Assembly (NCBI RefSeq): GCF_007990525.1
Contig: NZ_AP019823.1
Coordinates: forward strand, 1,116,001-1,180,000
DNA: 64,000 nucleotides
Origin: Leptotrichia hofstadii
Lineage (GTDB): Bacteria; Fusobacteriota; Fusobacteriia; Fusobacteriales; Leptotrichiaceae
Direction of reading: 5' to 3'
Below the pieces are notes generated by a model. It searched no databases. It saw nothing but the letters and a program-made list of their open reading frames with translations, and had not been told where the DNA came from. Each line of letters starts with the position of its first letter. Position 1 is the first letter of the stretch. Made by a program: the position numbers and the translations under genes. This document shows positions 4,607 to 36,418 of the stretch, piece by piece.

Positions 4607-4633
4607 ATAGGAAAGTGAATAATTTGGATGAAG

Positions 4634-4822
4634 GTATGAGGAGAGATTTTATTTCATTTATAAATTTTGTAAATATGTAATAAAACACCGAAGAAGTAAC
4701 TCTTTCAGGTAAAAGGACTCATAGTGGACGAGCCTCTGGAGAGACTGTCTTAAATGACGGCACCGAAGGAGCAAAGGAATTTTATTCCCTAAACTCTCAG
4801 GTAAAAGAACAGAGAATGATAC
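4634..4822 (+). promoter_or_regulatory. Tandem glycine riboswitch
   Basis: Two consecutive aptamers with the conserved gcvT-type elements. The first runs from GAGGAGAGA (about 4638) through ACCGAAGAAG, CTCTTTCAGGTAAAAGGAC and GGACGAGCC. The second has CTCTGGAGAGA, ACCGAAGGAGCAA and ACTCTCAGGTAAAAGAACAGAG. A terminator hairpin follows at 4875-4915, before the symporter gene, so the expression platform is probably transcriptional. Whether glycine turns the gene on or off cannot be decided by eye. Confidence 0.93.
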
Positions 4823-4874
4823 ATATAAAATTATGGATTTTATATTTCTTTTTTAATATAAAAGAAATTTTAAG

Positions 4875-4915
4875 AGGTTGTCTTGACTTTATTTAAGTAA
4901 AAGACAGCCTTTTTC
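4875..4915 (+). terminator. Riboswitch expression-platform terminator
   Basis: AGGTTGTCTT (4875-4884) pairs with AAGACAGCCT (4901-4910, one G-T wobble), followed by TTTTT. It lies between the second glycine aptamer and the symporter start. Confidence 0.8.
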
Positions 4916-25791: not shown

Positions 25792-26310
25792 ATGGGATTA
25801 TTTGATTTATTCAAAAAAGGGAACAAAGGTGAAGAAGTGAAACAGGAATTTGAGGGAAAAGTAATAGCTCCTATTTCAGGAAACTTATTACCTTTATCAG
25901 AAGTGCCTGATGAAGTTTTTGCTCAAAAAATGGTAGGAGATGGAATTGCTATCGAACCAACTGCATCAGGTGTAATGTTAGCGCCAGCTTCTGGAAGAGT
26001 AGAAAAAATCTTTGATACTAATCATGCTTTCAGTATAGTAACGCCTTCTGGAATCGAAATTTTTGTTCACTTTGGAATGGATACAGTTCAACTGGAAGGA
26101 AAAGGATTTGAAAGAATCGCTGAAGAGGGAGCAGTAGTAAAAGTAGGAGACCCATTAATCAAATACGACTACGATTTCTTAAAGGCAAACGCAAAATCAA
26201 TTATTACGCCAGTAATTATTTCAAATTACGAAAGTTACAGCGCATTAAATCCGCTTGAATCAGGATCGGCAGTAGCTGGAGAAACAGCAGTTCTAAATGT
26301 TGAAAAATAG
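25792..26310 (+). CDS. crr: PTS glucose-type EIIA component (Crr-like), stand-alone
   Basis: Phosphocarrier of the sugar phosphotransferase system: takes phosphate from HPr and hands it to an EIIB domain. 172 residues, a single PF00358 domain. The active-site His93 is in IFVHFGMDTV, and the second catalytic-site His78 is in NHAFSIVTPSG, with the E. coli 15-residue spacing. VAPISGNLLPLSEVPD and KVGDPLIKYDYDFL are typical. With no EIIBC domain attached or adjacent, it may serve several permeases, as E. coli Crr does, possibly including one for trehalose given the treC gene at 50 kb. GGAGG precedes the ATG, and a terminator follows. Confidence 0.92.
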   Translation: MGLFDLFKKGNKGEEVKQEFEGKVIAPISGNLLPLSEVPDEVFAQKMVGDGIAIEPTASGVMLAPASGRVEKIFDTNHAFSIVTPSGIEIFVHFGMDTVQLEGKGFERIAEEGAVVKVGDPLIKYDYDFLKANAKSIITPVIISNYESYSALNPLESGSAVAGETAVLNVEK

Positions 26311-26338
26311 TTTTAATCGAAAATGCCTTTAATAAAAG

Positions 26339-26387
26339 AATCTCTATCTAAGCATAGCGGTATATATGCTTTTTTAGAGATTTTTTA
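26339..26387 (+). terminator. Terminator after the EIIA gene
   Basis: AATCTCTA (26339-26346) pairs with TAGAGATT (26375-26382), followed by TTTTT. The loop carries a second small inverted repeat (AGCATA/TATGCT). Confidence 0.75.
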
Positions 26388-26481
26388 TTTCTATGTTTAA
26401 ATAGTAAATATTATTATATTAATTTTATAAGGAAAAATAAATGCTTTGATATGAAAAAAATATAAATTTTTAAAAAAGGTA

Positions 26482-26509
26482 TTGACATTTTTTTTAAATT
26501 TGATAAAAT
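26482..26509 (+). promoter_or_regulatory. Strong promoter of the autotransporter leader
   Basis: TTGACA (26482-26487), 16-bp spacer, extended -10 TGATAAAAT (TG 26501-26502, TAAAAT 26504-26509). Transcription should begin near 26516, about 290 bases upstream of the likely start codon. Confidence 0.75.
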
Positions 26510-26558
26510 ATATAGGTGATGAATTTTTTAATAAATTAAATCATTTCCTTTGTTAATG

Positions 26559-26600
26559 AGGTTATTTCATAGTAACTAACGAGTGGAATAACCTTTTTAT
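26559..26600 (+). terminator. Terminator-like hairpin inside the autotransporter leader
   Basis: AGGTTATT (26559-26566) and AATAACCT (26587-26594) form an 8-bp stem with a 20-base loop, followed by TTTTTAT. It sits about 45 bases after the predicted transcription start and ahead of the coding region. It would give either a short RNA of about 80-85 bases or an attenuation point. The rest of 26311-26729 is AT-rich with no recognisable gene. Confidence 0.65.
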
Positions 26601-26765
26601 TTGTATTTATTAATTAAATGAAATAGAAATATAAATAATATTATTTAAAAATTATAATAATTATAAAAAATATGGATGTATAATTTTTAGATAATTTTAT
26701 TTGCTGTTAGAAACAGTATTCAGGAATAGATGATTTCGATTGTAAAAGATTTCATCACGGCTAAG

Positions 26766-26790
26766 AAAATTAGAAAAATTAGAAAAATTA
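26766..26790 (+). repeat. 9-bp tandem repeat beside the autotransporter ribosome site
   Basis: AAAATTAGA occurs at 26766-26774 and 26775-26783, then a partial third copy AAAATTA at 26784-26790. It lies just before AAAAAAGGAG and the ATG at 26808. Copy-number change would alter the spacing upstream of the ribosome site. Confidence 0.7.
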
Positions 26791-26807
26791 ATAAAAAAGG
26801 AGAAGAA

Positions 26808-29800
26808 ATGACAAACAATTTGAGAAGATTTTCGCAGGATTTACGTGCGTTTGCAAAAAGAACAAAAGATTTCAAATATACGGAATCAGCATTAATCACA
26901 TTTTTAATAACAGGAATGATATTTTCTGCAGGAAAACTGGATGCAGCTCCGAAAGAGCCTACTATAGAAAATCAAAGAAGATCTATTTCTACATCCATAA
27001 CAGATATGCGCCAGAACTTTAAAAGAGTGAAAGCTGAAACTAAAAAATTAATAAAAGACAGCAACATGGAATTGATACAATTGATGGAACAGGGAGATCA
27101 TGTAACAAAAAGTCCTTGGAGCAGCTGGCAATTTGGACAAAACTTTTTCTATGATGACTGGCATGGCGCTTATAAGGGAAGAGGAGATAAGAAAATAAAA
27201 TATCCTTATGAAGGAATTTTTGAAAGAGGGGACAGATACGAAAGGGCAATAAATCCTTTAAGTGACAAGTACGAGGAGATGCCTCTGGCTTCAAGAAAAA
27301 ATGCCGCTTCAAGTTCGCAAAGAACAGGGCTTGTTTCAGATTCGTACGGACTTGTGGGAGTAAAACCTCTTTTAGAACCGACAGTAGGATTTAATGTAAG
27401 CGTTGCAATTAGACCAAAACAGGTTGTAAAAGGAGCAATAACGATTGCAGATAAAACGCCTGCAACACCTGCACAGCCAGAAACAATAATTTTTAACGCT
27501 CCTAATATAAGCGTAACAGCGCCAGCGGCGCCACAAGTGGAACCTGCACAAGTTACAATAAGCTCGTTGACGGTAACACCTCCGATGCTGCCTAGTATTA
27601 CGTTGCCAACGCCACTTTCGTTTACACCGGCTTCACCAACAGTAAATGTAAGTATTCCAACTCCAAATTCTTTGCCAACGCTAAATTTTACAGCGACAGG
27701 TAATGGAGATGAATCATATATGCTAGGTGGAGGTCCTGGGACATGGACTTATACAAAAGGGGCTTCATATTATGCTCCAAGTGACAGGGCGGCAGTTGCG
27801 CTTATGGGTCAGGTAAGTATGAGTTCGGGAACAGTTAGCTACACGGATTCAGGTATTACTATAAATGGAAATTTGACTGGATCAGGTTCAATGGGTGGAA
27901 GCTGGAGTTTTAGTGGAACTCATAGCGTAACAGGATTTACTGGACATGCGCTTATAAAAAATACTGGAGATTATACTTCAAATATAGACAATACAACTAT
28001 AACCTTCAACAGATCGGGAGGTGCTAATTATGATGCATGGCTATTTCACACGGATGCCCATAATAGCAGCGTAGTATCTGCATTTGTCCTAGGAAGTGGA
28101 ACAACAATTAATACAACGGGTAATAAATCTGTTGTATATACTTCTCAATTTCATAATGGAAATTTAAATGCTGAATTTACAAATAATGGAACTATTGATA
28201 TGGGAGGTACTGAGAATATTGTATGGGTAGCATTGAATGAAAATGCAAGAAGCAGACATAAAGACAATATTTTCAGAAATGGCGGAACAATAAAGCTGAA
28301 CAGTTCTAAAAATACGTTTGCATATATAGATATGCCGACTACTATAGGAGCTATTGGTGGAGGCTGGGCTGGAAAAGGAGTTCCAGCAGGCGGTTCTGCA
28401 GGTGGAACTAACGCAGGTAATAGTAACGGTTGGGAAATAATAAGTACAGGAACGTTAGATATAGGCGGGACTCAGAATACAGGAATATTTATAAATGACA
28501 GCTGGAAATACTGGAAGGCTAAGATTGAGCTTGCTGCTGGAGATAAAACTAAAATTTCAGGAACTAAAAATATAGGAACATATTTTAAAGGCTGGGCAGA
28601 TGTCTCTACTTCAAAACTTAATATGCAAATGCCTGGAGATGAAAATGTAGGAATATACCTTGAATACGCAGGTACAGCAACAGATGATGAGTTTAAGTTC
28701 ACAAGCGCTTCAACATTAGATTCAGAAGGCAAGAAAAATGTTTTGATATACAATAAGGCCAGTAAAGCTAATTTTGGAACAAATGTTAATTTAAAAGTTA
28801 ATGGAAAAGAAAATGTTGGGATTGTTAATGAATCTGCACAAGATTTAGTAACTGCCGCAAAAATTGAAACAACAAAAAATTCTGGGGAAGAATCAATTGG
28901 AATATACTCAAAAGGGACAGGTGCAACTACTAATACTGGAAATATAACTATGAAGGCTAAAAAAGTAAAAGGTATTGTAGCTGATAACTCAGGAACTATT
29001 AACAATAATGGTGGAACTATTGCTGTGGAAGGAGATGAAGTTGCAGGTGCAATTGCGATGGGGAATGGAACTGTAAATATTTCGACAGCTTCACCAAGCA
29101 ATGCAACAACGATTACAGTAAAAGGAAAATCAGGACTCGGACTTTATGCAGAAAGTGGCGGTACAATTAATGCAGGCGATGCAACAATTACAAGTTCTGG
29201 AGGTGCCGTAAATGTTTATTCTAATGGTGGGGATATTCATTTAAGCAAAAACAATAAAAAGACTACAGTAAATGTAGGAGCTGATTCACTTGGATTTATG
29301 AGAACGGGAGGTAACCAGATAATATTTGACAGTGCTACAGAACTTAATGTTGCCACAGGCGGATCAGGATTTTATATAACAACATCTCCAGTTCCAACTT
29401 CAGTTTCATATCCTGTAAACATTGCGTCAGAACTTACTGCTGGATATTCGGGACTGAATAAATTGACTGCAAATATGAGTGCAGACTCGAACTTGGTAGT
29501 TGCTTCGTATGCACAAGCTAATTTATCTGATTTGGATCTTTCGGGATATGGTATGACTATAAATGGTACTGGGCATAAAGAATTTTTACTGTACAGAAGT
29601 AAATTGACTCTTGATTCTCCAAAGACTTATAATGATTATAAAAAAATAGCATTATCCAGTTCATCAATTATTAATGATACAGCTATACAGACAGATGATG
29701 ACGGTGTAAAGCTTATGGCACAAGAAAATGATGGCGGTACTGATAAATGGGTAAAACTGGAAAATAAGAAAACTATTGAACTAGGTGGAAAAAATTCAGT

Positions 29801-32800
29801 TGCGATGTATGCGAGCGATGGTACTATAAAAAATCATTCAGGTGCAACTATCACAATGAAAAAAGAAGGATCTGCCGCAATCTTTGGTAAGAATACAGGA
29901 AAAGGTGATACAGAGATTATAAATGATGGAGACATCCAGATTGGTGAAAAATCTGTAGGACTTTTTGCTGAAGATTATACTGAAAAAAATCTTGAAAATG
30001 CAGGTAAAATTGCTATTGTTGGAAACAGCGGAATCGGAATGTACTACAAGGCAGGGGCTTTGACGCAAGATGTAACAATGGAAAATAAAACTGGAGCTGA
30101 GATTAGTGGAACTGAATTGGGTGGAACAACTCCAGCAACATCTGTAAAAAGAGTTGGAATGTACTCAGAAGCTAACAGCAGCAGCAAAAAACTGACTGCT
30201 AAAAACTCGGGAGACATAAAGATTCTCGGAGATGGTGCAAGTTCTATAGGCGATGCTAACATCGGAATGTACACGAATGCAACTGCAGCAGGAACAAATC
30301 CATTGGAAAATGCAGGAACGATTGAACTTGGAAAATATGGAATCGGAATGTATGGATGGGATTTGGATACTAGCGGAGATATAACAGTCGGAGATGGCGG
30401 AGTTGCCATTTATTCACAAGGTGGAGATGTCAATATGACTGCGTCTGGAACTAAAAAGATAAAAGTTGGGAAAGACGCAAGAGGAATTCTTGTTGTAGGA
30501 GACGGTCAGACTGTTACAGCCACTAACTATGAATATGAAATTGGAGATGGGTCTTACGGATTTGTTAATAGAAATTCGGGATCAACAGGAAATACATTTA
30601 CAATAAGTGGCGGAAAGGCTACATTAGGAAACAAAGGTAAATTTATTTACTCAAGTGATACAAAAGGAAATATTACAAACTCAACAGACATGGAAATGCT
30701 AAGTACTGCAACTGATGGAGAAAACTACGGTATTTATGCTACAGGAACTGTAATTAACAGTGGGAAAATCGAATTTACTAAAGGTAAAGGGAATGTAGGT
30801 ATTTATGCTACAGAAGATGGAAACATTACAAACAGTGGAAATATTGAACTTGGAGAATCTGATGCCGCAAACAAGAAGTACAGTATAGGAATTATAGCAA
30901 AACCTGGAAAAGTTACAAACAGCGGAACTGTCAAGATTGGAGATTCAGCTAATTCAATTGACGGAAAAGATGGAATTGGACTGTTTGCAGACAGTGAAAA
31001 TGGAAAAAATGGAGAAATCATAAATACAGGAGCGGTAACTACCGAAGGAGATTCAACTATCGGTGCTTATGCAAATGCAAGTTCAAAAATTAGCCTTGGT
31101 GCAGGCGGAGATATTACCGTAAAGGGAGATAAGACTACTGGATACTATATTGATCAAGGTACAGGAAGCAGCATTGATTCAGGTGTAAGCATAGATGTGA
31201 CAGGAGACAATGCTAATGGTGTATTTGTAAACAAAGGTGGACTGACATACGAAGGGGACACGACTGTAACAGGTGATGGAGCTTACGGATTTGTAGCAGG
31301 TAAAAATTCTTCTGTAACTGCTAACGGCGGAAGCGTTACCGTGTCAGGCGCTTCAGGATCTTCAAAAGCTACAACTGGAACTGGTGGAAGAGGAACTGCA
31401 GGAGTTGTCGCGTTGGCAGGGGCAAATCTGACTGGCGGAAAAATGAATGTAGATGCAGATGTTACAGATGAAGGCTCTGTAGGAATATATTCGGCTGGAA
31501 AAATTGAAATTGACAAGGCTGATATAAAAGCATACAATGGAGCAGTAAACTTCTTTGCTGATAATGGAGGAACTATCTCTGTTGGAAATAATGGTGGCTC
31601 AAGCACAGTCGTAACAGGAACTGGTACTGACAAGGGCTCACTTCTGTTCTACACTCCTGGAGGAAAAGTGCTTATAAACGGTCCTATGACTGCTACTATT
31701 GAAGGTGGAACTAAAGCTACTACACGTGGTACTGCATTCTACTATACTGGTGGAGGGACATTAGGAAATATCGCTTCTTATACGGCATTGACACCTGGGA
31801 ACGTTGCAGCTTGGGCAAGAACTAACTATGGAAACGGTACAACAAGTACGCTTGGTAACTTGACATTAAATATGCAGGCTGATTCAAGACTGTTCCTGAC
31901 TCAAAAAGTTAATATGAATTTGTCAAATACGTCAGTTTCAAACTTGTTTAGCGGTCTTGCCTCAACAGAAAAGCCGACAGTAGGAGGAAGTAACGATTAT
32001 AGAAGATTTATGCTTTATCAAAGTCATCTGAACGTGGATCAGGCAGTAAATCTGGATAATCCAAGCGATGACTACAACCTGCTTGAAATCTCAAACTCAA
32101 GCATAACTAACAATAGCACGATAACAGGAACTCAAGATGGGCAAATTGGTATTGCGCAGGAAAACTCAGACCTTGCTACGCCAAAATCTACAGTAACACT
32201 TATAAATAAAGGGACTATAGACTTGTCTGGTAAAAACTCGGCTGCAATTTATGGGAAAAACGCTATTGTCGTAAATGATACTGCAGGTATCATAAAGATA
32301 GCAAAAAGCTCGACAGGGCTATATGGATTGAGAAATACAGAGATTTATAACAAAGGAAATATTTCGGTAGGAAATAAATCGACAGGAATGTTCTATTCAG
32401 ACGTATTTACAGATCCAGTAACAAGTGCTTTAACAATATACGATACAGAAACAGGGCTTCAAAATACAGGTACAATAACTCTTGATGACGAAGAAGGAGT
32501 TGGAATGACATACGAACCTGGAAATATAACTGTTGCGCCAGTATTTGAAAATGCAGGGACAATTACAAGTACAAAAGATAAGAATGTCGGAATGTATGCA
32601 AAAGTCGCAAAAAATAATATTTCATACGACACAGTAAACAGCAAAGTAATCACATTTGGAGATTCTGCTTCGCTTGCTGACCCTAATGTGGCAATGTATA
32701 CAAATGCAGCTGGAACTGGTACAAATCCGCTTATAAATAACGGAGATATAACAATCGGAAAAAATGCCGTTGGAATATATGGATTTGAAGAAGTGAACAA

Positions 32801-35297
32801 TAAAAACATAACTGTAGGCGATGGATCTGTCGCAATGTACTCTAAAGGAGGAAATGTTGACTTAAATTCAGGGACTATTAAGGTTGGAAAAAATGAAGCT
32901 GTCGGAGTGTATACAGTTGGAAGCGGACAGCAGATTACAAATACAGGAACAGCGTTTGACATAGGGGATACTTCGTTCGGATTTGTAAATGTTGGAACAG
33001 GGAATACGATTGAAAGCAATATTTCAGATGTAACACTGAAGAATGATTCGGTTTACGCATATTCAAATGATACTTCTGGAATAATCAGAAATAATACAAA
33101 CTTGACATCAGTAGGTACGAATGGAAATAACTATGGTATTTACGCTGCAGGGACAATTGAAAATAACGGAAATATTGACTTTAATACAGGAATAGGAAAT
33201 GTCGGTGTTTATTCTGTAAAAAATGGAAATGCGAGAAATACTGGTACAATATCTGTTGGGGGATCTGATCCTATTAACAAGATATTCAGTGTCGGAATGG
33301 CCGCTGGATATATAGGGGATTCCAGCACGCCTGCAACTACTGGAAATATTGAGAACAACGGAACAATCAACGTAAACGGAAAATACAGCATAGGAATGTA
33401 CGGTGTTGGAGCAGGAACTACAGTTACAAACAACAGTGACATTGTATTAAATGCAAACAACACAATAGGTATTTACGTTGAGGAAGGTGCAAAGGCTATA
33501 AATAACGGTTCGATAAGAACAGGTGCAAGCGGGCTGTCAAGCGTGACAGGAGTTGTGCTTAGCAAAAATTCAACTTTGGATAATAGAGGTACGATAGATA
33601 TTGACTCAAGATCTGGAGTAGGAGTGTATCTTAAAGGTGGAACAATTATCAACCGTGGACGTATAAATGTAACTGGAAAAGGAGCTGTGGAAGAGTACGA
33701 CATGGCTAAGAATGCCACTTCAAAACCTATGGGAGATGTAATAATTGATGCTCCTGCAGGATCGCCAACTGCTAAAATAATAGTAGCTGGAAAAGGTGAA
33801 GTTCAGCCTACATTAGTTACAACTACAGCAGAAAATCCAATAACAGTGTCGGCTTCAAGCATAGGGCTTTATGTAGATACTTCCAGCAAAAATTATACTC
33901 AGGCGATTGATAATCTAGGAGCATTGACAGGCGAGGCTGATCTGATAATAGGAGTAGAGGCGGCAGAAAATACGGCAAGCAAATATATTCAGATAAATGA
34001 CAGAAATATCCTGGATCCATATAACAGGGCAATCGTGTACGGTGGAGTTGCAAAATGGACAGTCTATTCTGGAGCGTTGACTTGGATGGCTACACCGACT
34101 CTTGATCCTGACACAGGAGAAATTACAAATCTGTACATGGCGAAAGCGGCATATACTAACTGGGCCTCTAACAGCAAAGTAACTCCAACAAAAGTTACAG
34201 ATACATACAATTTTGCTGACGGGCTGGAACAAAGATATGGAGTTAAGCCGCTTGGAACTAGGGAAAATCAAATATTCCAAAAATTAAATTCAATTGGAAA
34301 TAATGAAGAAATCCTTCTGTACCAAGCTTTTGACGAAATGATGGGACATCAGTACGGTAATCTGCAGCAAAGAATCAGCAAAACTGGAAGCCTTCTGGAT
34401 AAAGAGTTCAACCACTTGAGAAAAGACTGGAGAAAACCATCTAAGGACAACAACAAAATTAAGGTATTCGGTATGAGGGACGAATATAATTCTGATACTG
34501 CCGGAGTAATTGACAACACTAGCAACGCTTACGGATTTGCTTATGTTCATGAAAATGATACAGTAAAATTAGGAAACAGTTCAGGATGGTATGCCGGAGC
34601 GGTAACTAACAGATTCAGATTCAAGGATATTGGACATTCTAAAGAAAATCAGTCAATGATTAAGGCAGGAGTATTCAAGACAATGTCGCCTAAAAATGAC
34701 CATAACGGTTCATTAAGATGGACTATCTCGGGAGATGTGTATGCTGGAATTAATGATATGAAACGTAGATATCTTGTAGTAGATGAAGTATTTGAAGCAA
34801 AATCTGACTACCGTACTTATGGAGCGGCAGTTAAGAATGAGCTTGGATATAACATAAGAATGAGCGAGAGAACACATTTACGTCCTTATGGAGCATTAAA
34901 GATGGAATACGGAAGATTTAACAACATAAAAGAAGACAGAGGGGAAATGCGTCTGGAAGTAAAAGGAAACGACTACTTCTCAGTAAAACCTGAAGTTGGA
35001 ATGGAATTCAGATATGTACAGCCATTGGCAGTAAGAACAAATTTATCGGTAGGACTGACAGCGGCTTATGAAAACGAACTAGGAAAAGTTGGAGAAAATA
35101 ACAACAAGGCAAGAGTAAGATATACAAATGCCGACTGGTTTGGAATAAGAGGCGAAAAGGATGACAGAAAAGGAAGCGGTAAGTTTGACTTGAATATCGG
35201 AATTGATAATACGAGATTTGGAGTGACTGTAAATGCCGGATATGACACTAAAGGTAAAAATGTAAGAGGTGGAATAGGATTCAGGGCTATTTACTAA
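26808..35297 (+). CDS. Giant type V autotransporter (adhesin-like), Leptotrichia/Fusobacterium type
   Basis: About 2,829 residues from the ATG at 26808, which has AAAGGAGAAG ahead of it; the open frame reaches back to 26730 without a ribosome site. Order: an extended charged N-region with a hydrophobic stretch (MTNNLRRFSQD...ALITFLITGMIFSAG) typical of fusobacterial autotransporters; a conserved WSSWQFGQNFFYDDWHG segment; a Pro/Thr-rich linker near residues 220-310; then about 2,100 residues of Gly/Asn/Thr-rich beta-helix repeats of the form NxGxIxxGxxxxGIY; and a C-terminal beta-barrel of about 280 residues ending GGIGFRAIY. The passenger contains a roughly 800-residue internal duplication. 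Cysteine is essentially absent. Function is probably adhesion or surface coat, by family. Confidence 0.93.
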   Translation: MTNNLRRFSQDLRAFAKRTKDFKYTESALITFLITGMIFSAGKLDAAPKEPTIENQRRSISTSITDMRQNFKRVKAETKKLIKDSNMELIQLMEQGDHVTKSPWSSWQFGQNFFYDDWHGAYKGRGDKKIKYPYEGIFERGDRYERAINPLSDKYEEMPLASRKNAASSSQRTGLVSDSYGLVGVKPLLEPTVGFNVSVAIRPKQVVKGAITIADKTPATPAQPETIIFNAPNISVTAPAAPQVEPAQVTISSLTVTPPMLPSITLPTPLSFTPASPTVNVSIPTPNSLPTLNFTATGNGDESYMLGGGPGTWTYTKGASYYAPSDRAAVALMGQVSMSSGTVSYTDSGITINGNLTGSGSMGGSWSFSGTHSVTGFTGHALIKNTGDYTSNIDNTTITFNRSGGANYDAWLFHTDAHNSSVVSAFVLGSGTTINTTGNKSVVYTSQFHNGNLNAEFTNNGTIDMGGTENIVWVALNENARSRHKDNIFRNGGTIKLNSSKNTFAYIDMPTTIGAIGGGWAGKGVPAGGSAGGTNAGNSNGWEIISTGTLDIGGTQNTGIFINDSWKYWKAKIELAAGDKTKISGTKNIGTYFKGWADVSTSKLNMQMPGDENVGIYLEYAGTATDDEFKFTSASTLDSEGKKNVLIYNKASKANFGTNVNLKVNGKENVGIVNESAQDLVTAAKIETTKNSGEESIGIYSKGTGATTNTGNITMKAKKVKGIVADNSGTINNNGGTIAVEGDEVAGAIAMGNGTVNISTASPSNATTITVKGKSGLGLYAESGGTINAGDATITSSGGAVNVYSNGGDIHLSKNNKKTTVNVGADSLGFMRTGGNQIIFDSATELNVATGGSGFYITTSPVPTSVSYPVNIASELTAGYSGLNKLTANMSADSNLVVASYAQANLSDLDLSGYGMTINGTGHKEFLLYRSKLTLDSPKTYNDYKKIALSSSSIINDTAIQTDDDGVKLMAQENDGGTDKWVKLENKKTIELGGKNSVAMYASDGTIKNHSGATITMKKEGSAAIFGKNTGKGDTEIINDGDIQIGEKSVGLFAEDYTEKNLENAGKIAIVGNSGIGMYYKAGALTQDVTMENKTGAEISGTELGGTTPATSVKRVGMYSEANSSSKKLTAKNSGDIKILGDGASSIGDANIGMYTNATAAGTNPLENAGTIELGKYGIGMYGWDLDTSGDITVGDGGVAIYSQGGDVNMTASGTKKIKVGKDARGILVVGDGQTVTATNYEYEIGDGSYGFVNRNSGSTGNTFTISGGKATLGNKGKFIYSSDTKGNITNSTDMEMLSTATDGENYGIYATGTVINSGKIEFTKGKGNVGIYATEDGNITNSGNIELGESDAANKKYSIGIIAKPGKVTNSGTVKIGDSANSIDGKDGIGLFADSENGKNGEIINTGAVTTEGDSTIGAYANASSKISLGAGGDITVKGDKTTGYYIDQGTGSSIDSGVSIDVTGDNANGVFVNKGGLTYEGDTTVTGDGAYGFVAGKNSSVTANGGSVTVSGASGSSKATTGTGGRGTAGVVALAGANLTGGKMNVDADVTDEGSVGIYSAGKIEIDKADIKAYNGAVNFFADNGGTISVGNNGGSSTVVTGTGTDKGSLLFYTPGGKVLINGPMTATIEGGTKATTRGTAFYYTGGGTLGNIASYTALTPGNVAAWARTNYGNGTTSTLGNLTLNMQADSRLFLTQKVNMNLSNTSVSNLFSGLASTEKPTVGGSNDYRRFMLYQSHLNVDQAVNLDNPSDDYNLLEISNSSITNNSTITGTQDGQIGIAQENSDLATPKSTVTLINKGTIDLSGKNSAAIYGKNAIVVNDTAGIIKIAKSSTGLYGLRNTEIYNKGNISVGNKSTGMFYSDVFTDPVTSALTIYDTETGLQNTGTITLDDEEGVGMTYEPGNITVAPVFENAGTITSTKDKNVGMYAKVAKNNISYDTVNSKVITFGDSASLADPNVAMYTNAAGTGTNPLINNGDITIGKNAVGIYGFEEVNNKNITVGDGSVAMYSKGGNVDLNSGTIKVGKNEAVGVYTVGSGQQITNTGTAFDIGDTSFGFVNVGTGNTIESNISDVTLKNDSVYAYSNDTSGIIRNNTNLTSVGTNGNNYGIYAAGTIENNGNIDFNTGIGNVGVYSVKNGNARNTGTISVGGSDPINKIFSVGMAAGYIGDSSTPATTGNIENNGTINVNGKYSIGMYGVGAGTTVTNNSDIVLNANNTIGIYVEEGAKAINNGSIRTGASGLSSVTGVVLSKNSTLDNRGTIDIDSRSGVGVYLKGGTIINRGRINVTGKGAVEEYDMAKNATSKPMGDVIIDAPAGSPTAKIIVAGKGEVQPTLVTTTAENPITVSASSIGLYVDTSSKNYTQAIDNLGALTGEADLIIGVEAAENTASKYIQINDRNILDPYNRAIVYGGVAKWTVYSGALTWMATPTLDPDTGEITNLYMAKAAYTNWASNSKVTPTKVTDTYNFADGLEQRYGVKPLGTRENQIFQKLNSIGNNEEILLYQAFDEMMGHQYGNLQQRISKTGSLLDKEFNHLRKDWRKPSKDNNKIKVFGMRDEYNSDTAGVIDNTSNAYGFAYVHENDTVKLGNSSGWYAGAVTNRFRFKDIGHSKENQSMIKAGVFKTMSPKNDHNGSLRWTISGDVYAGINDMKRRYLVVDEVFEAKSDYRTYGAAVKNELGYNIRMSERTHLRPYGALKMEYGRFNNIKEDRGEMRLEVKGNDYFSVKPEVGMEFRYVQPLAVRTNLSVGLTAAYENELGKVGENNNKARVRYTNADWFGIRGEKDDRKGSGKFDLNIGIDNTRFGVTVNAGYDTKGKNVRGGIGFRAIY
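29150..33420 (+). repeat. Large internal duplication in the autotransporter passenger
   Basis: Two modules, about 29.15-30.98 kb and 31.48-33.42 kb, align in order with an offset of about 2.4 kb. Matching landmarks: GAVNVYSNGGDI and GAVNFFADNGGTI; LTANMSADSNL and LTLNMQADSRL; FLLYRSKL and FMLYQSHL; MAQENDGG and IAQENSDL; MYTNATAAGTNPL and MYTNAAGTGTNPL; VAIYSQGGDV and VAMYSKGGNV; ENYGIYATGT and NNYGIYAAGT. Identity is moderate, so the duplication is old. Confidence 0.8.
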
Positions 35298-35578: not shown

Positions 35579-35752
35579 TTATCTTTTATTTTTATTTAAA
35601 GCCTTGCATGGCACCTTTTGGGGGTATTCTCTCCAATCATAATATAAGCCGTCTTCCTCATTATAAGAACAATTTCTATAATTTCCCATTTTCAAAGCAT
35701 AACAGCTAGTTAATAATGCTGTTAAAATAGTCAATAATATAATGTTTTTCAT
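35579..35752 (-). CDS. Tiny lipoprotein, array member 4 (57 aa)
   Basis: Translating the minus strand by hand from ATG at 35752 gives 57 residues: a type II signal peptide with lipobox LLTSC (Cys17), then YRNCSYNEEDGLYYDW, a second conserved Cys49 in KVPCKALNK, and a basic C-terminus. AAGGAG lies nine bases ahead, within the stop region of the preceding array member. It is the last of four tandem paralogues. No known family is recognised. Mature length is about 41 residues, so it is likely a structural or inhibitor-type lipoprotein rather than an enzyme. Confidence 0.8.
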   Translation of the reverse strand: MKNIILLTILTALLTSCYALKMGNYRNCSYNEEDGLYYDWREYPQKVPCKALNKNKR

Positions 35753-35764
35753 TTTTCTTGCTCC

Positions 35765-35941
35765 TTACCTCGGTTTTATATTACACTTTTTAACCCCGAC
35801 ATATTTCCCATCAACATATACTGATTTATAAAAAGCATCTTTTTCCTTGTCATAGGAACACTCTCGGTATAAACCCATATTCCAAGCATAGCATCCAGTT
35901 GTTAATATTGATAAAATAATCAATAATAAAATTTTTTTCAT
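35765..35941 (-). CDS. Tiny lipoprotein, array member 3 (58 aa)
   Basis: Hand translation from ATG at 35941 gives 58 residues: signal peptide with lipobox LTTGC (Cys17), core YRECSYDKEKDAFYKS, and second Cys53 in GVKKCNIKPR. This is the most diverged copy: DGLYYD has become DAFYKS and the PCxxLNKK tail is replaced. The start context GAGAATTAAA is a weak ribosome site, derived from the duplicated spacer shared with member 2. The stop is 12 bases before the next array member. Confidence 0.8.
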   Translation of the reverse strand: MKKILLLIILSILTTGCYAWNMGLYRECSYDKEKDAFYKSVYVDGKYVGVKKCNIKPR

Positions 35942-35970
35942 TTTAATTCTCTTTCTTTCCTTTGCAGAAA

Positions 35971-36159
35971 TTATTTTTTTCTCTTTCTTTCAATTTTCTT
36001 ATTTAAACTCGTACAAGGCACTTTTTCTGGATATTTGACCCAATAATCATAATATAAGCCATCTTCGTCGTTATAAGAACATCCTCTATAGTTGCTTTGC
36101 TCTAAAATGTCACATCCAGTTGTTAATACTAAGATAAGCAATAATAAAATTTTTTTCAT
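35971..36159 (-). CDS. Tiny lipoprotein, array member 2 (62 aa)
   Basis: 62 residues with signal peptide and lipobox LTTGC (Cys16), core YRGCSYNDEDGLYYDYW, then VPCTSLNKKIERKRKK with Cys49. The Lys/Arg-rich tail is shared almost exactly with member 1. The intergenic spacers 36160-36192 and 35942-35970 are themselves near copies (TTTTAATTC, CTTTCTTTC, CAGAAATTATTTTTTTC on the plus strand), which shows the repeat unit included the ribosome-site region. Function unknown. Confidence 0.82.
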   Translation of the reverse strand: MKKILLLLILVLTTGCDILEQSNYRGCSYNDEDGLYYDYWVKYPEKVPCTSLNKKIERKRKK

Positions 36160-36192
36160 TTTAATTCCCTTTCTTTCTTTCCTTTACAGAAA

Positions 36193-36363
36193 TTATTTTT
36201 TTCTATTTCTTTCAATTTTTTTATTTAAAGAAGTGCAAGGTGTACCATCTACTGAATTATAATACAGTCCGTCTCCTTCATAGTAAGAACAATTTCTTGA
36301 ATACCACACCGTACAGCTTGTTGTTAATGCTGATAAAAATAATAAAAGCATTAGTCTTTTCAT
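36193..36363 (-). CDS. Tiny lipoprotein, array member 1 (56 aa)
   Basis: Promoter-proximal copy. The ATG at 36363 is chosen over one 30 bases further out because AGGAGG (36374-36379) is ten bases upstream. The product is 56 residues: signal peptide, lipobox LTTSC (Cys17), core RNCSYYEGDGLYYNS, then TPCTSLNKKIERNRKK. Two cysteines outside the lipobox (Cys25 and Cys43) are conserved in all copies, suggesting one disulfide in the mature protein. It is driven by the promoter at 36390-36418 and transcribed divergently from the lysine riboswitch. Confidence 0.82.
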   Translation of the reverse strand: MKRLMLLLFLSALTTSCTVWYSRNCSYYEGDGLYYNSVDGTPCTSLNKKIERNRKK

Positions 36364-36389
36364 TTTTCTTCTACCTCCTATCTGTAATA

Positions 36390-36418
36390 ACAATACCTTA
36401 TAAAATTTGAATTGTCAA
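36390..36418 (-). promoter_or_regulatory. Promoter of the tiny-lipoprotein array
   Basis: Minus strand TTGACA (36418-36413), 17-bp spacer, TATTGT (36395-36390). It lies back to back with the lysine riboswitch promoter, about 30 bases away. Confidence 0.65.

What the first reader, a model, noticed from the sequence alone, without database searches (positions are those of the whole stretch)
26482..26807. Autotransporter leader with a built-in terminator: attenuator or small RNA
A strong promoter is followed, about 45 bases after the expected start, by an 8-bp stem and a T-run, well before the coding region of a 2.8-kilo-residue surface protein. Transcription should mostly stop near base 26600 unless an antiterminating structure or factor acts. 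That gives either a switch for a costly protein or an independent RNA of about 80 bases.
Basis: partly seen in the sequence, partly recalled or inferred. Interest (0 to 1): 0.52.

Follow-up and report, generated by a model that had tools for sequence, protein, structure and literature searches.

The report
Early stop signal before adhesin gene
A strong start signal for a giant surface-protein gene in a Leptotrichia bacterium is followed almost at once by a believable stop signal, so the gene probably makes a short stub of RNA in many rounds and the full message only by read-through; the layout is of a known kind.

Summary
A promoter (26482-26509) is followed, 42 nt after the predicted start, by a hairpin (26558-26595, 13 outer and 2 inner pairs, -14.0 kcal/mol) and TTTTTATTT. 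0 of 400 shuffled leaders had one at -13 or better. In a census of the window it is the only positive-scoring terminator neither at an ORF end nor behind a riboswitch. The gene is a fuso_auto_Nterm autotransporter of a Leptotrichia sp. Premature termination, giving about 85 nt of RNA, is the best reading. A regulated switch has thin support: an alternative pairing exists, but 3-6% of controls do as well; no Rfam family matches; one NusG domain was found. The terminator is not a family trait: the closest autotransporter found (87% over the N-terminus) keeps the promoter and lacks the hairpin. One L. hongkongensis leader keeps promoter, a 5' hairpin and the TCATTTCCTTTGT linker, but its second hairpin is followed only by ATTTCTT. 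Unexpectedly, the whole leader ranks first of 100 autotransporter leaders for excess folding, with a long-range helix reached by 1 of 1000 shuffles. Ordinary in kind, unconserved in what was searched, untested by experiment.

The parts
26338..26383 (+). Terminator of the upstream PTS IIA gene; a positive control, not part of the leader
   Evidence: -17.5 kcal/mol, d-score 11.6 (an earlier value of -13 used wrongly chosen ends). By eye a hairpin with an AGAGATTTTTT-type tail follows the IIA gene in 9 of 12 relatives, and another hairpin in the other 3 (L177-L179).
26482..26509 (+). Sigma-70-type promoter, TTGACA-16-TGATAAAAT, predicted start about 26516
   Evidence: 11 of 12 matches, extended -10. 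A promoter with the same hexamers and spacing precedes the closest autotransporter found, L067.
26516..26544 (+). 5' hairpin of the short transcript; also part of the left arm of the long-range helix
   Evidence: Folds in the 91-nt transcript. Inverted repeat with 26730-26758, 76% over 29 nt.
26541..26553 (+). Pyrimidine-rich linker TCATTTCCTTTGT; its last 9 nt (UUCCUUUGU, 26545-26553) are unpaired in the short RNA
   Evidence: Fold; the 13 nt are identical in L091, a L. hongkongensis autotransporter leader.
26545..26588 (+). Alternative (antiterminator-like) pairing: 26545-26554 with 26578-26588, and 26560-26566 with 26571-26577; excludes the terminator
   Evidence: MFE of the transcript prefix at 3' ends 26586 (-10.2) to 26592 (-13.7); 30-58 of 1000 controls reach it.
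26558..26595 (+). Intrinsic terminator hairpin, -14.0 kcal/mol
   Evidence: 0 of 400 shuffles at -13 or better; d-score +3.5; the ten pairs 26560-26569 have probability 0.99 or more in the full leader.
26594..26602 (+). U-tract TTTTTATTT; expected 3' end of an RNA of about 80-88 nt
   Evidence: Sequence.
26633..26702 (+). AT-rich long hairpin in the read-through leader
   Evidence: -15.2 kcal/mol, 0 of 500 shuffles; arms 92% complementary over 24 nt.
26722..26758 (+). Right arm of the long-range helix with 26516-26549 (29 pairs), which would close the read-through leader
   Evidence: -24.8 kcal/mol, 1 of 1000 shuffles (tested after the fold had shown it); pairs in the MFE structure.
26797..26810 (+). 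Shine-Dalgarno AAGGAG and start codon ATG 26808
   Evidence: Sequence; the MT(N/S)N start recurs in the six relatives printed.
26808..35297 (+). Autotransporter gene, 2829 aa, fuso_auto_Nterm domain
   Evidence: NF033175, 153 bits, E 3.4e-45.

Best explanation
The leader carries a working intrinsic terminator. RNA polymerase starting near 26516 is expected to stop near 26600 in a sizeable share of rounds and release an RNA of about 85 nt (5' hairpin, single-stranded UUCCUUUGU, terminator hairpin, U-tail). The autotransporter mRNA is made by the polymerases that read through, so the terminator mainly sets a low, fixed ratio of mRNA to starts. Shown: the sequence features, their non-randomness, their place between promoter and gene, and the lack of the hairpin in the nearest relative found. 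Inferred: the start site, the fraction terminated, read-through as the source of the mRNA, and any use of the short RNA.
For: 0 of 400 shuffled leaders had a hairpin with T-run at -13 kcal/mol or better. Census of both strands of the window (44 ORFs chosen by me as genes; d-score formula written from memory): 24 hairpin/T-run candidates at -9 or better. The 8 inside genes all had negative d-scores. Of 16 outside, 12 were positive and 4 negative (all 4 just after a gene end, one overlapping a positive). Of the 12 positives, 9 lie 6-112 nt after a same-strand gene end, 1 lies 28 nt after a small minus-strand ORF, 1 follows the tandem glycine riboswitch, and 1 is this one. It is part of the minimum-energy state of the 91-nt transcript (-18.7). 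Its core pairs keep probability 0.99 or more in the whole leader, and blocking its 3' arm costs 9-10 kcal/mol. No + strand promoter with 9 of 12 matches lies between it and the gene.
Against: No conservation seen: the closest autotransporter found (L067; 87% identity over the N-terminal 331 aa) has the same kind of promoter and a 195-nt leader with no terminator called in it. No homologue of the whole hairpin in 13 Leptotrichia genomes; only short partial matches at E 0.01-0.1. The d-score is modest: +3.5, against 6.6-19.9 for seven of the other eleven positives and 0.6-1.0 for four. A perfect TATAAT at 26679-26684 without a good -35 could start the gene downstream. The alternative pairing competes during synthesis. 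Nothing was measured.
Confidence: 0.55

Rival explanations
1. Regulated attenuator: the alternative pairing (26545-26554 with 26578-26588) is a true antiterminator, stabilised by a protein, RNA or other signal, so termination is switched off under some condition.
For: The alternative pairing is the MFE for every transcript 3' end from 26586 to 26592 (-10.2 to -13.7) and the terminator overtakes only from 26593. It uses the linker that L091 also keeps.
Against: 30 to 58 of 1000 controls with fixed terminator arms do as well. It loses by 5 kcal/mol once the hairpin is complete (-13.7 against -18.7). No Rfam match; one NusG hit only (a diverged paralogue could be missed); only 42 nt precede the hairpin, little room for an aptamer.
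Confidence: 0.15
2. Independent small RNA gene: promoter and terminator belong to an sRNA, and the autotransporter has its own start further downstream.
For: sRNA-like layout in the 91-nt fold: 5' hairpin, 9 single-stranded nt UUCCUUUGU, terminator hairpin, U-tail. FoxJ of F. nucleatum is such a case: a 5' UTR with a strong internal 3' end and a weak secondary start (PMC11005410, section 6 read).
Against: The same kind of promoter serves the related gene L067, which has no terminator after it. No second promoter with 9 of 12 matches. Pairing of the linker with the gene's own SD is no better than chance (257 of 1000). The three other sites for ACAAAGGAAATG in the genome all lie within long open frames, though one (L228) could be a start.
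Confidence: 0.12
3. The hairpin is only one arm of a folded 5' untranslated region that protects or shapes the mRNA; termination at it is weak and incidental.
For: The leader is far more folded than its shuffles (z -5.8; -6.5) and ranks first of 100 autotransporter leaders (z -7.1, next -5.7 and -5.3; 20 shuffles each, last 300 nt). A -24.8 kcal/mol helix joins the 5' end to 26722-26758 (1 of 1000). L091, whose leader is also over-folded (z -4.8), has a hairpin at the same place followed only by ATTTCTT (d-score -47).
Against: The long-range helix is not shared: of 15 leaders with a promoter assigned by script or by me, the window's had 0 of 300 shuffles as good, the next best L083 9, L067 28, L101 35 and L091 46 of 300. 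A U-tract directly after the stem is not needed for a purely structural arm.
Confidence: 0.18

Closest known systems
FoxJ, sRNA from the 5' UTR of ylmH in Fusobacterium nucleatum (PMC11005410; sections 5 and 6 and passages read)
   Same: Same phylum; a leader with a strong internal 3' end that yields a short RNA ahead of a protein gene.
   Different: FoxJ is about 156 nt, sigma-E dependent, lies between der and the 4.5S RNA, is strongly conserved among fusobacteria, and its gene has a weak second start. Here: about 85 nt, sigma-70-type promoter, autotransporter gene, no conservation found.
Rli51-mpl leader of Listeria monocytogenes (PMC11394854; abstract and outline read)
   Same: 5' UTR terminator releasing a short RNA (121 nt), with read-through into the gene under some conditions and an alternative fold.
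   Different: Rli51's antiterminator is predicted to be more stable than its terminator, and another sRNA acts on it; here the terminator is 5 kcal/mol more stable and no regulator is known.
Glycine and lysine riboswitches in this same window (Rfam RF00504, RF00168)
   Same: Leader RNAs; the glycine leader is also followed by a positive-scoring terminator (4874-4911).
   Different: They carry recognisable aptamers; this leader has none that Rfam knows.
radABCD leader of F. nucleatum (PMC12186487; passages read)
   Same: Controls a large fusobacterial autotransporter adhesin; the window protein matches part of the RadD model but far below its cut-off (211.6 against 3500 bits).
   Different: Its start lies 8 nt before the RBS of radA and it is controlled by CarR binding to DNA, so no long leader.

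Membership tests
Intrinsic (Rho-independent) terminator | Stable hairpin directly followed by a U-tract | tested here: met
   -14.0 kcal/mol then TTTTTATTT; d-score +3.5.
Intrinsic (Rho-independent) terminator | Transcripts end there | not testable with these tools
   No RNA data.
Transcription attenuator with antiterminator | Mutually exclusive alternative structure better than chance | tested here: inconclusive
   Present, but 30-58 of 1000 controls reach it.
Transcription attenuator with antiterminator | Conserved or covarying pairing in homologous leaders | tested here: not met
   No homologue of the whole hairpin; one leader shares promoter, GTGAT start, a 5' hairpin and linker only. Two sequences give no covariation test.
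Known riboswitch, T-box or other Rfam leader family | Match to a covariance model | tested here: not met
   No gathering-level match in the leader. At E up to 10 on 26300-26830 the one match was a sub-threshold microRNA model over the IIA terminator.
FoxJ | Location upstream of ylmH | tested here: not met
   The gene here is an autotransporter preceded by PTS IIA.
FoxJ | Primary-sequence conservation among fusobacteria | tested here: not met
   Over 26516-26760, 4 of 98 genomes of the phylum gave a match at E 1e-7 (8 candidates scored per genome): the window's own, and three that match only AT-rich sequence (query 106-177).
NusG-paralogue (RfaH/LoaP) antitermination | A second NusG-domain protein in the genome | tested here: not met
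   One PF02357 match in the genome at E 0.001.
fuso_auto_Nterm autotransporters | NF033175 N-terminal domain over its cut-off | tested here: met
   153 bits, cut-off 55.

The most novel reading that the evidence does not exclude
A lineage-specific two-state leader: the nascent RNA first forms the alternative pairing through the UUCCUUUGUU linker. Polymerases that escape the terminator go on to make a 243-nt closed multibranch leader, whose long-range helix takes up the same 5' hairpin and most of the linker. The short RNA and the mRNA would then differ in whether the linker is exposed, coupling adhesin output to a short RNA that can pair elsewhere.
Probability: 0.08. Interest if true: 0.5.

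Novelty: new member of a known kind. Interest (0 to 1): 0.25.

Why it matters
If termination is confirmed, it would be a case of premature termination at the leader of a giant fusobacterial-type adhesin gene, in a genus for which none of the 10 papers listed by my one search (84 held the terms) is a transcript-end map by its title. It also separates a stop signal found in one species from a more widespread trait: a predicted sigma-70-type promoter with a long leader at several Leptotrichia autotransporter genes.

Tried and rejected
Mobile repeat: the 29-nt inverted repeat at 26516-26544/26730-26758 suggested a MITE. Rejected: the own-genome search gave no second copy, only short promoter-like, RBS-like or AT-rich matches, and the start GTGAT recurs at other autotransporter leaders (L069, L078, L083, L091).

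Leader peptide: by eye only very short frames without a clear SD precede the hairpin; the one listed + strand frame of 20 codons or more that overlaps 26516-26558 begins before the predicted start. Rejected.

T-box-like reading of GAGTGGAATAACC: no Rfam support; in a T-box the motif lies in the 5' arm of the terminator (recalled), here it is in the 3' arm. Rejected.

Pairing of the linker with the gene's own ribosome-binding site: -9.5 kcal/mol, 257 of 1000 shuffles as good. Rejected.

Family-wide attenuation: 122 autotransporter N-terminus matches in 13 genomes. I fetched the leaders of 100 and left out 22, mostly the weakest matches and fragments. Of the 9 leaders whose best promoter scored 13 or more, two have a hairpin with T-run downstream of it (-6 or better): the window's, and a 56-nt one of L101 that ends about 70 nt before its start codon. 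A few others have candidates further from weaker promoters (for example L079 and L102). Not a shared trait.

Synteny: by eye the 700 nt after the IIA gene hold other sequence or genes in the 12 relatives, so synteny gives no comparison. An earlier count said that the IIA terminator is conserved in all 12; the recount is 9 of one kind and 3 of another.

Full report
Setting. The gene at 26808-35297 encodes 2829 aa with the fuso_auto_Nterm domain (NF033175, 153 bits). Upstream lies a PTS IIA gene (PF00358) with its own terminator; downstream are four small minus-strand ORFs, then a lysine riboswitch and lysA.

Observation. The promoter at 26482-26509 is real as a pattern: 11 of 12 consensus positions, extended -10, the only exact match in the window to the extended consensus. 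The hairpin at 26558-26595 is stronger than described: 13 outer pairs and 2 inner ones, -14.0 kcal/mol, followed by TTTTTATTT. Of 400 shuffled leaders 5 had such a hairpin at -8 or better and none at -13 or better.

Is it a terminator? I scanned both strands of the window for hairpins with T-runs, treating 44 ORFs as genes and using a d-score formula written from memory. Of 24 candidates, 8 lay inside genes, all with negative d-scores. Of the 16 outside, 4 were negative, all just after gene ends. Twelve were positive: nine 6-112 nt after a same-strand gene end, one 28 nt after a small minus-strand ORF, one behind the tandem glycine riboswitch, and this one. So a positive score is specific here, and this hairpin is the only positive case with no ORF end or known riboswitch just before it. 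Its score is modest (+3.5; the IIA terminator scores 11.6 in the same call).

Switch or fixed stop? While the transcript end lies between 26586 and 26592 an alternative pairing is the best structure; the terminator overtakes from 26593. That is the geometry of an attenuator. But with the terminator arms held fixed and the rest shuffled, 30 to 58 of 1000 controls fold as well, and the complete terminator wins by 5 kcal/mol. No Rfam family matches the leader. The genome shows one NusG domain. I therefore favour a fixed partial stop, about 0.55, over a switch, about 0.15.

Relatives. N-terminal searches of 13 Leptotrichia genomes gave 122 matches; I fetched and scanned 100 leaders. The nearest relative, L067 (87% over the N-terminal 331 aa), shares the promoter; its leader is 97 nt shorter and has no terminator called after the promoter. 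Beyond the promoter region the two leaders are barely more alike than shuffles (55 of 300 as good). L091, a L. hongkongensis autotransporter leader, shares 74 nt at 83% including the promoter, the start GTGAT and the 13-nt linker TCATTTCCTTTGT, and also folds a 5' hairpin. Its next hairpin is different in sequence and is followed only by ATTTCTT (d-score -47; the terminator scan lists none). In the 227 loci held the exact linker occurs in 15, all overlapping these two places. Wider searches found no homologue of the whole hairpin: in 13 Leptotrichia genomes matches of 17-27 nt at E 0.01-0.1 in 9 of the 12 others, several of them over the 3' arm and U-tract; in 33 genomes of the family with promoter plus hairpin three matches besides the window's own, none reaching the hairpin; in 98 of the phylum with 26516-26760 (8 candidates scored per genome) AT-rich matches only. 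By eye, after the IIA gene the 12 relatives have other sequence.

The rest of the leader. It is unusually folded: z -5.8 with 200 shuffles, and first of 100 autotransporter leaders when the last 300 nt are compared (z -7.1, next -5.7 and -5.3; only 20 shuffles each). A helix of 29 pairs joins 26516-26549 to 26722-26758 (-24.8 kcal/mol, 1 of 1000 shuffles; tested after it had been seen), and an AT-rich hairpin spans 26633-26702 (0 of 500). In the other 14 leaders with an assigned promoter no such closing helix stands out as clearly (L083 9, L067 28, L101 35, L091 46 of 300). This structure can form only in read-through RNA and leaves the ribosome-binding site free. Its role is unknown; stabilising the mRNA is a guess.

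Literature. FoxJ in F. nucleatum shows that leader-derived short RNAs occur in the phylum (PMC11005410, sections 5 and 6 read); the median 5' UTR there is 39 nt, so about 290 nt would be long. Rli51 in Listeria is reported to terminate early in a leader and to act as an sRNA too (PMC11394854, abstract and outline). F. nucleatum radABCD starts 8 nt before its RBS and is controlled by CarR (PMC12186487, passages). I found no transcript-end map of Leptotrichia in one search, of whose 84 papers I saw 10 listed.

Verdict. Observation confirmed; premature termination likely; regulated switch unproven; independent sRNA possible. A new example of a known kind of leader, not found in the relatives examined.

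Noticed in passing
L069, L073, L078, L083, L087, L091, L097, L107 and others (597 nt upstream of Leptotrichia autotransporters): ATCAC repeated two to three times at 9-11 nt spacing: 12 of 100 upstream regions hold three or more ATCAC, and ATCACT occurs in 38 of 100 against 15 expected. Helical spacing suggests a protein binding site; the window's leader shows no such cluster.
   Followed up: partly
35579-36393 (- strand): Four small tandem ORFs (57-66 aa) with similar lipoprotein-like starts and a shared CSY motif (DGLYY in three of the four) between the autotransporter and the lysine riboswitch.
   Followed up: no
26516-26758: The read-through leader is closed by a strong long-range helix and ranks first of 100 autotransporter leaders for excess folding.
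   Followed up: yes
4628-4911: Tandem glycine riboswitch followed by a positive-scoring terminator 96 nt before the next gene.
   Followed up: no
26730-26808: The mechanical ORF extends 26 codons upstream of the conserved start through the folded leader; probably not translated.
   Followed up: partly
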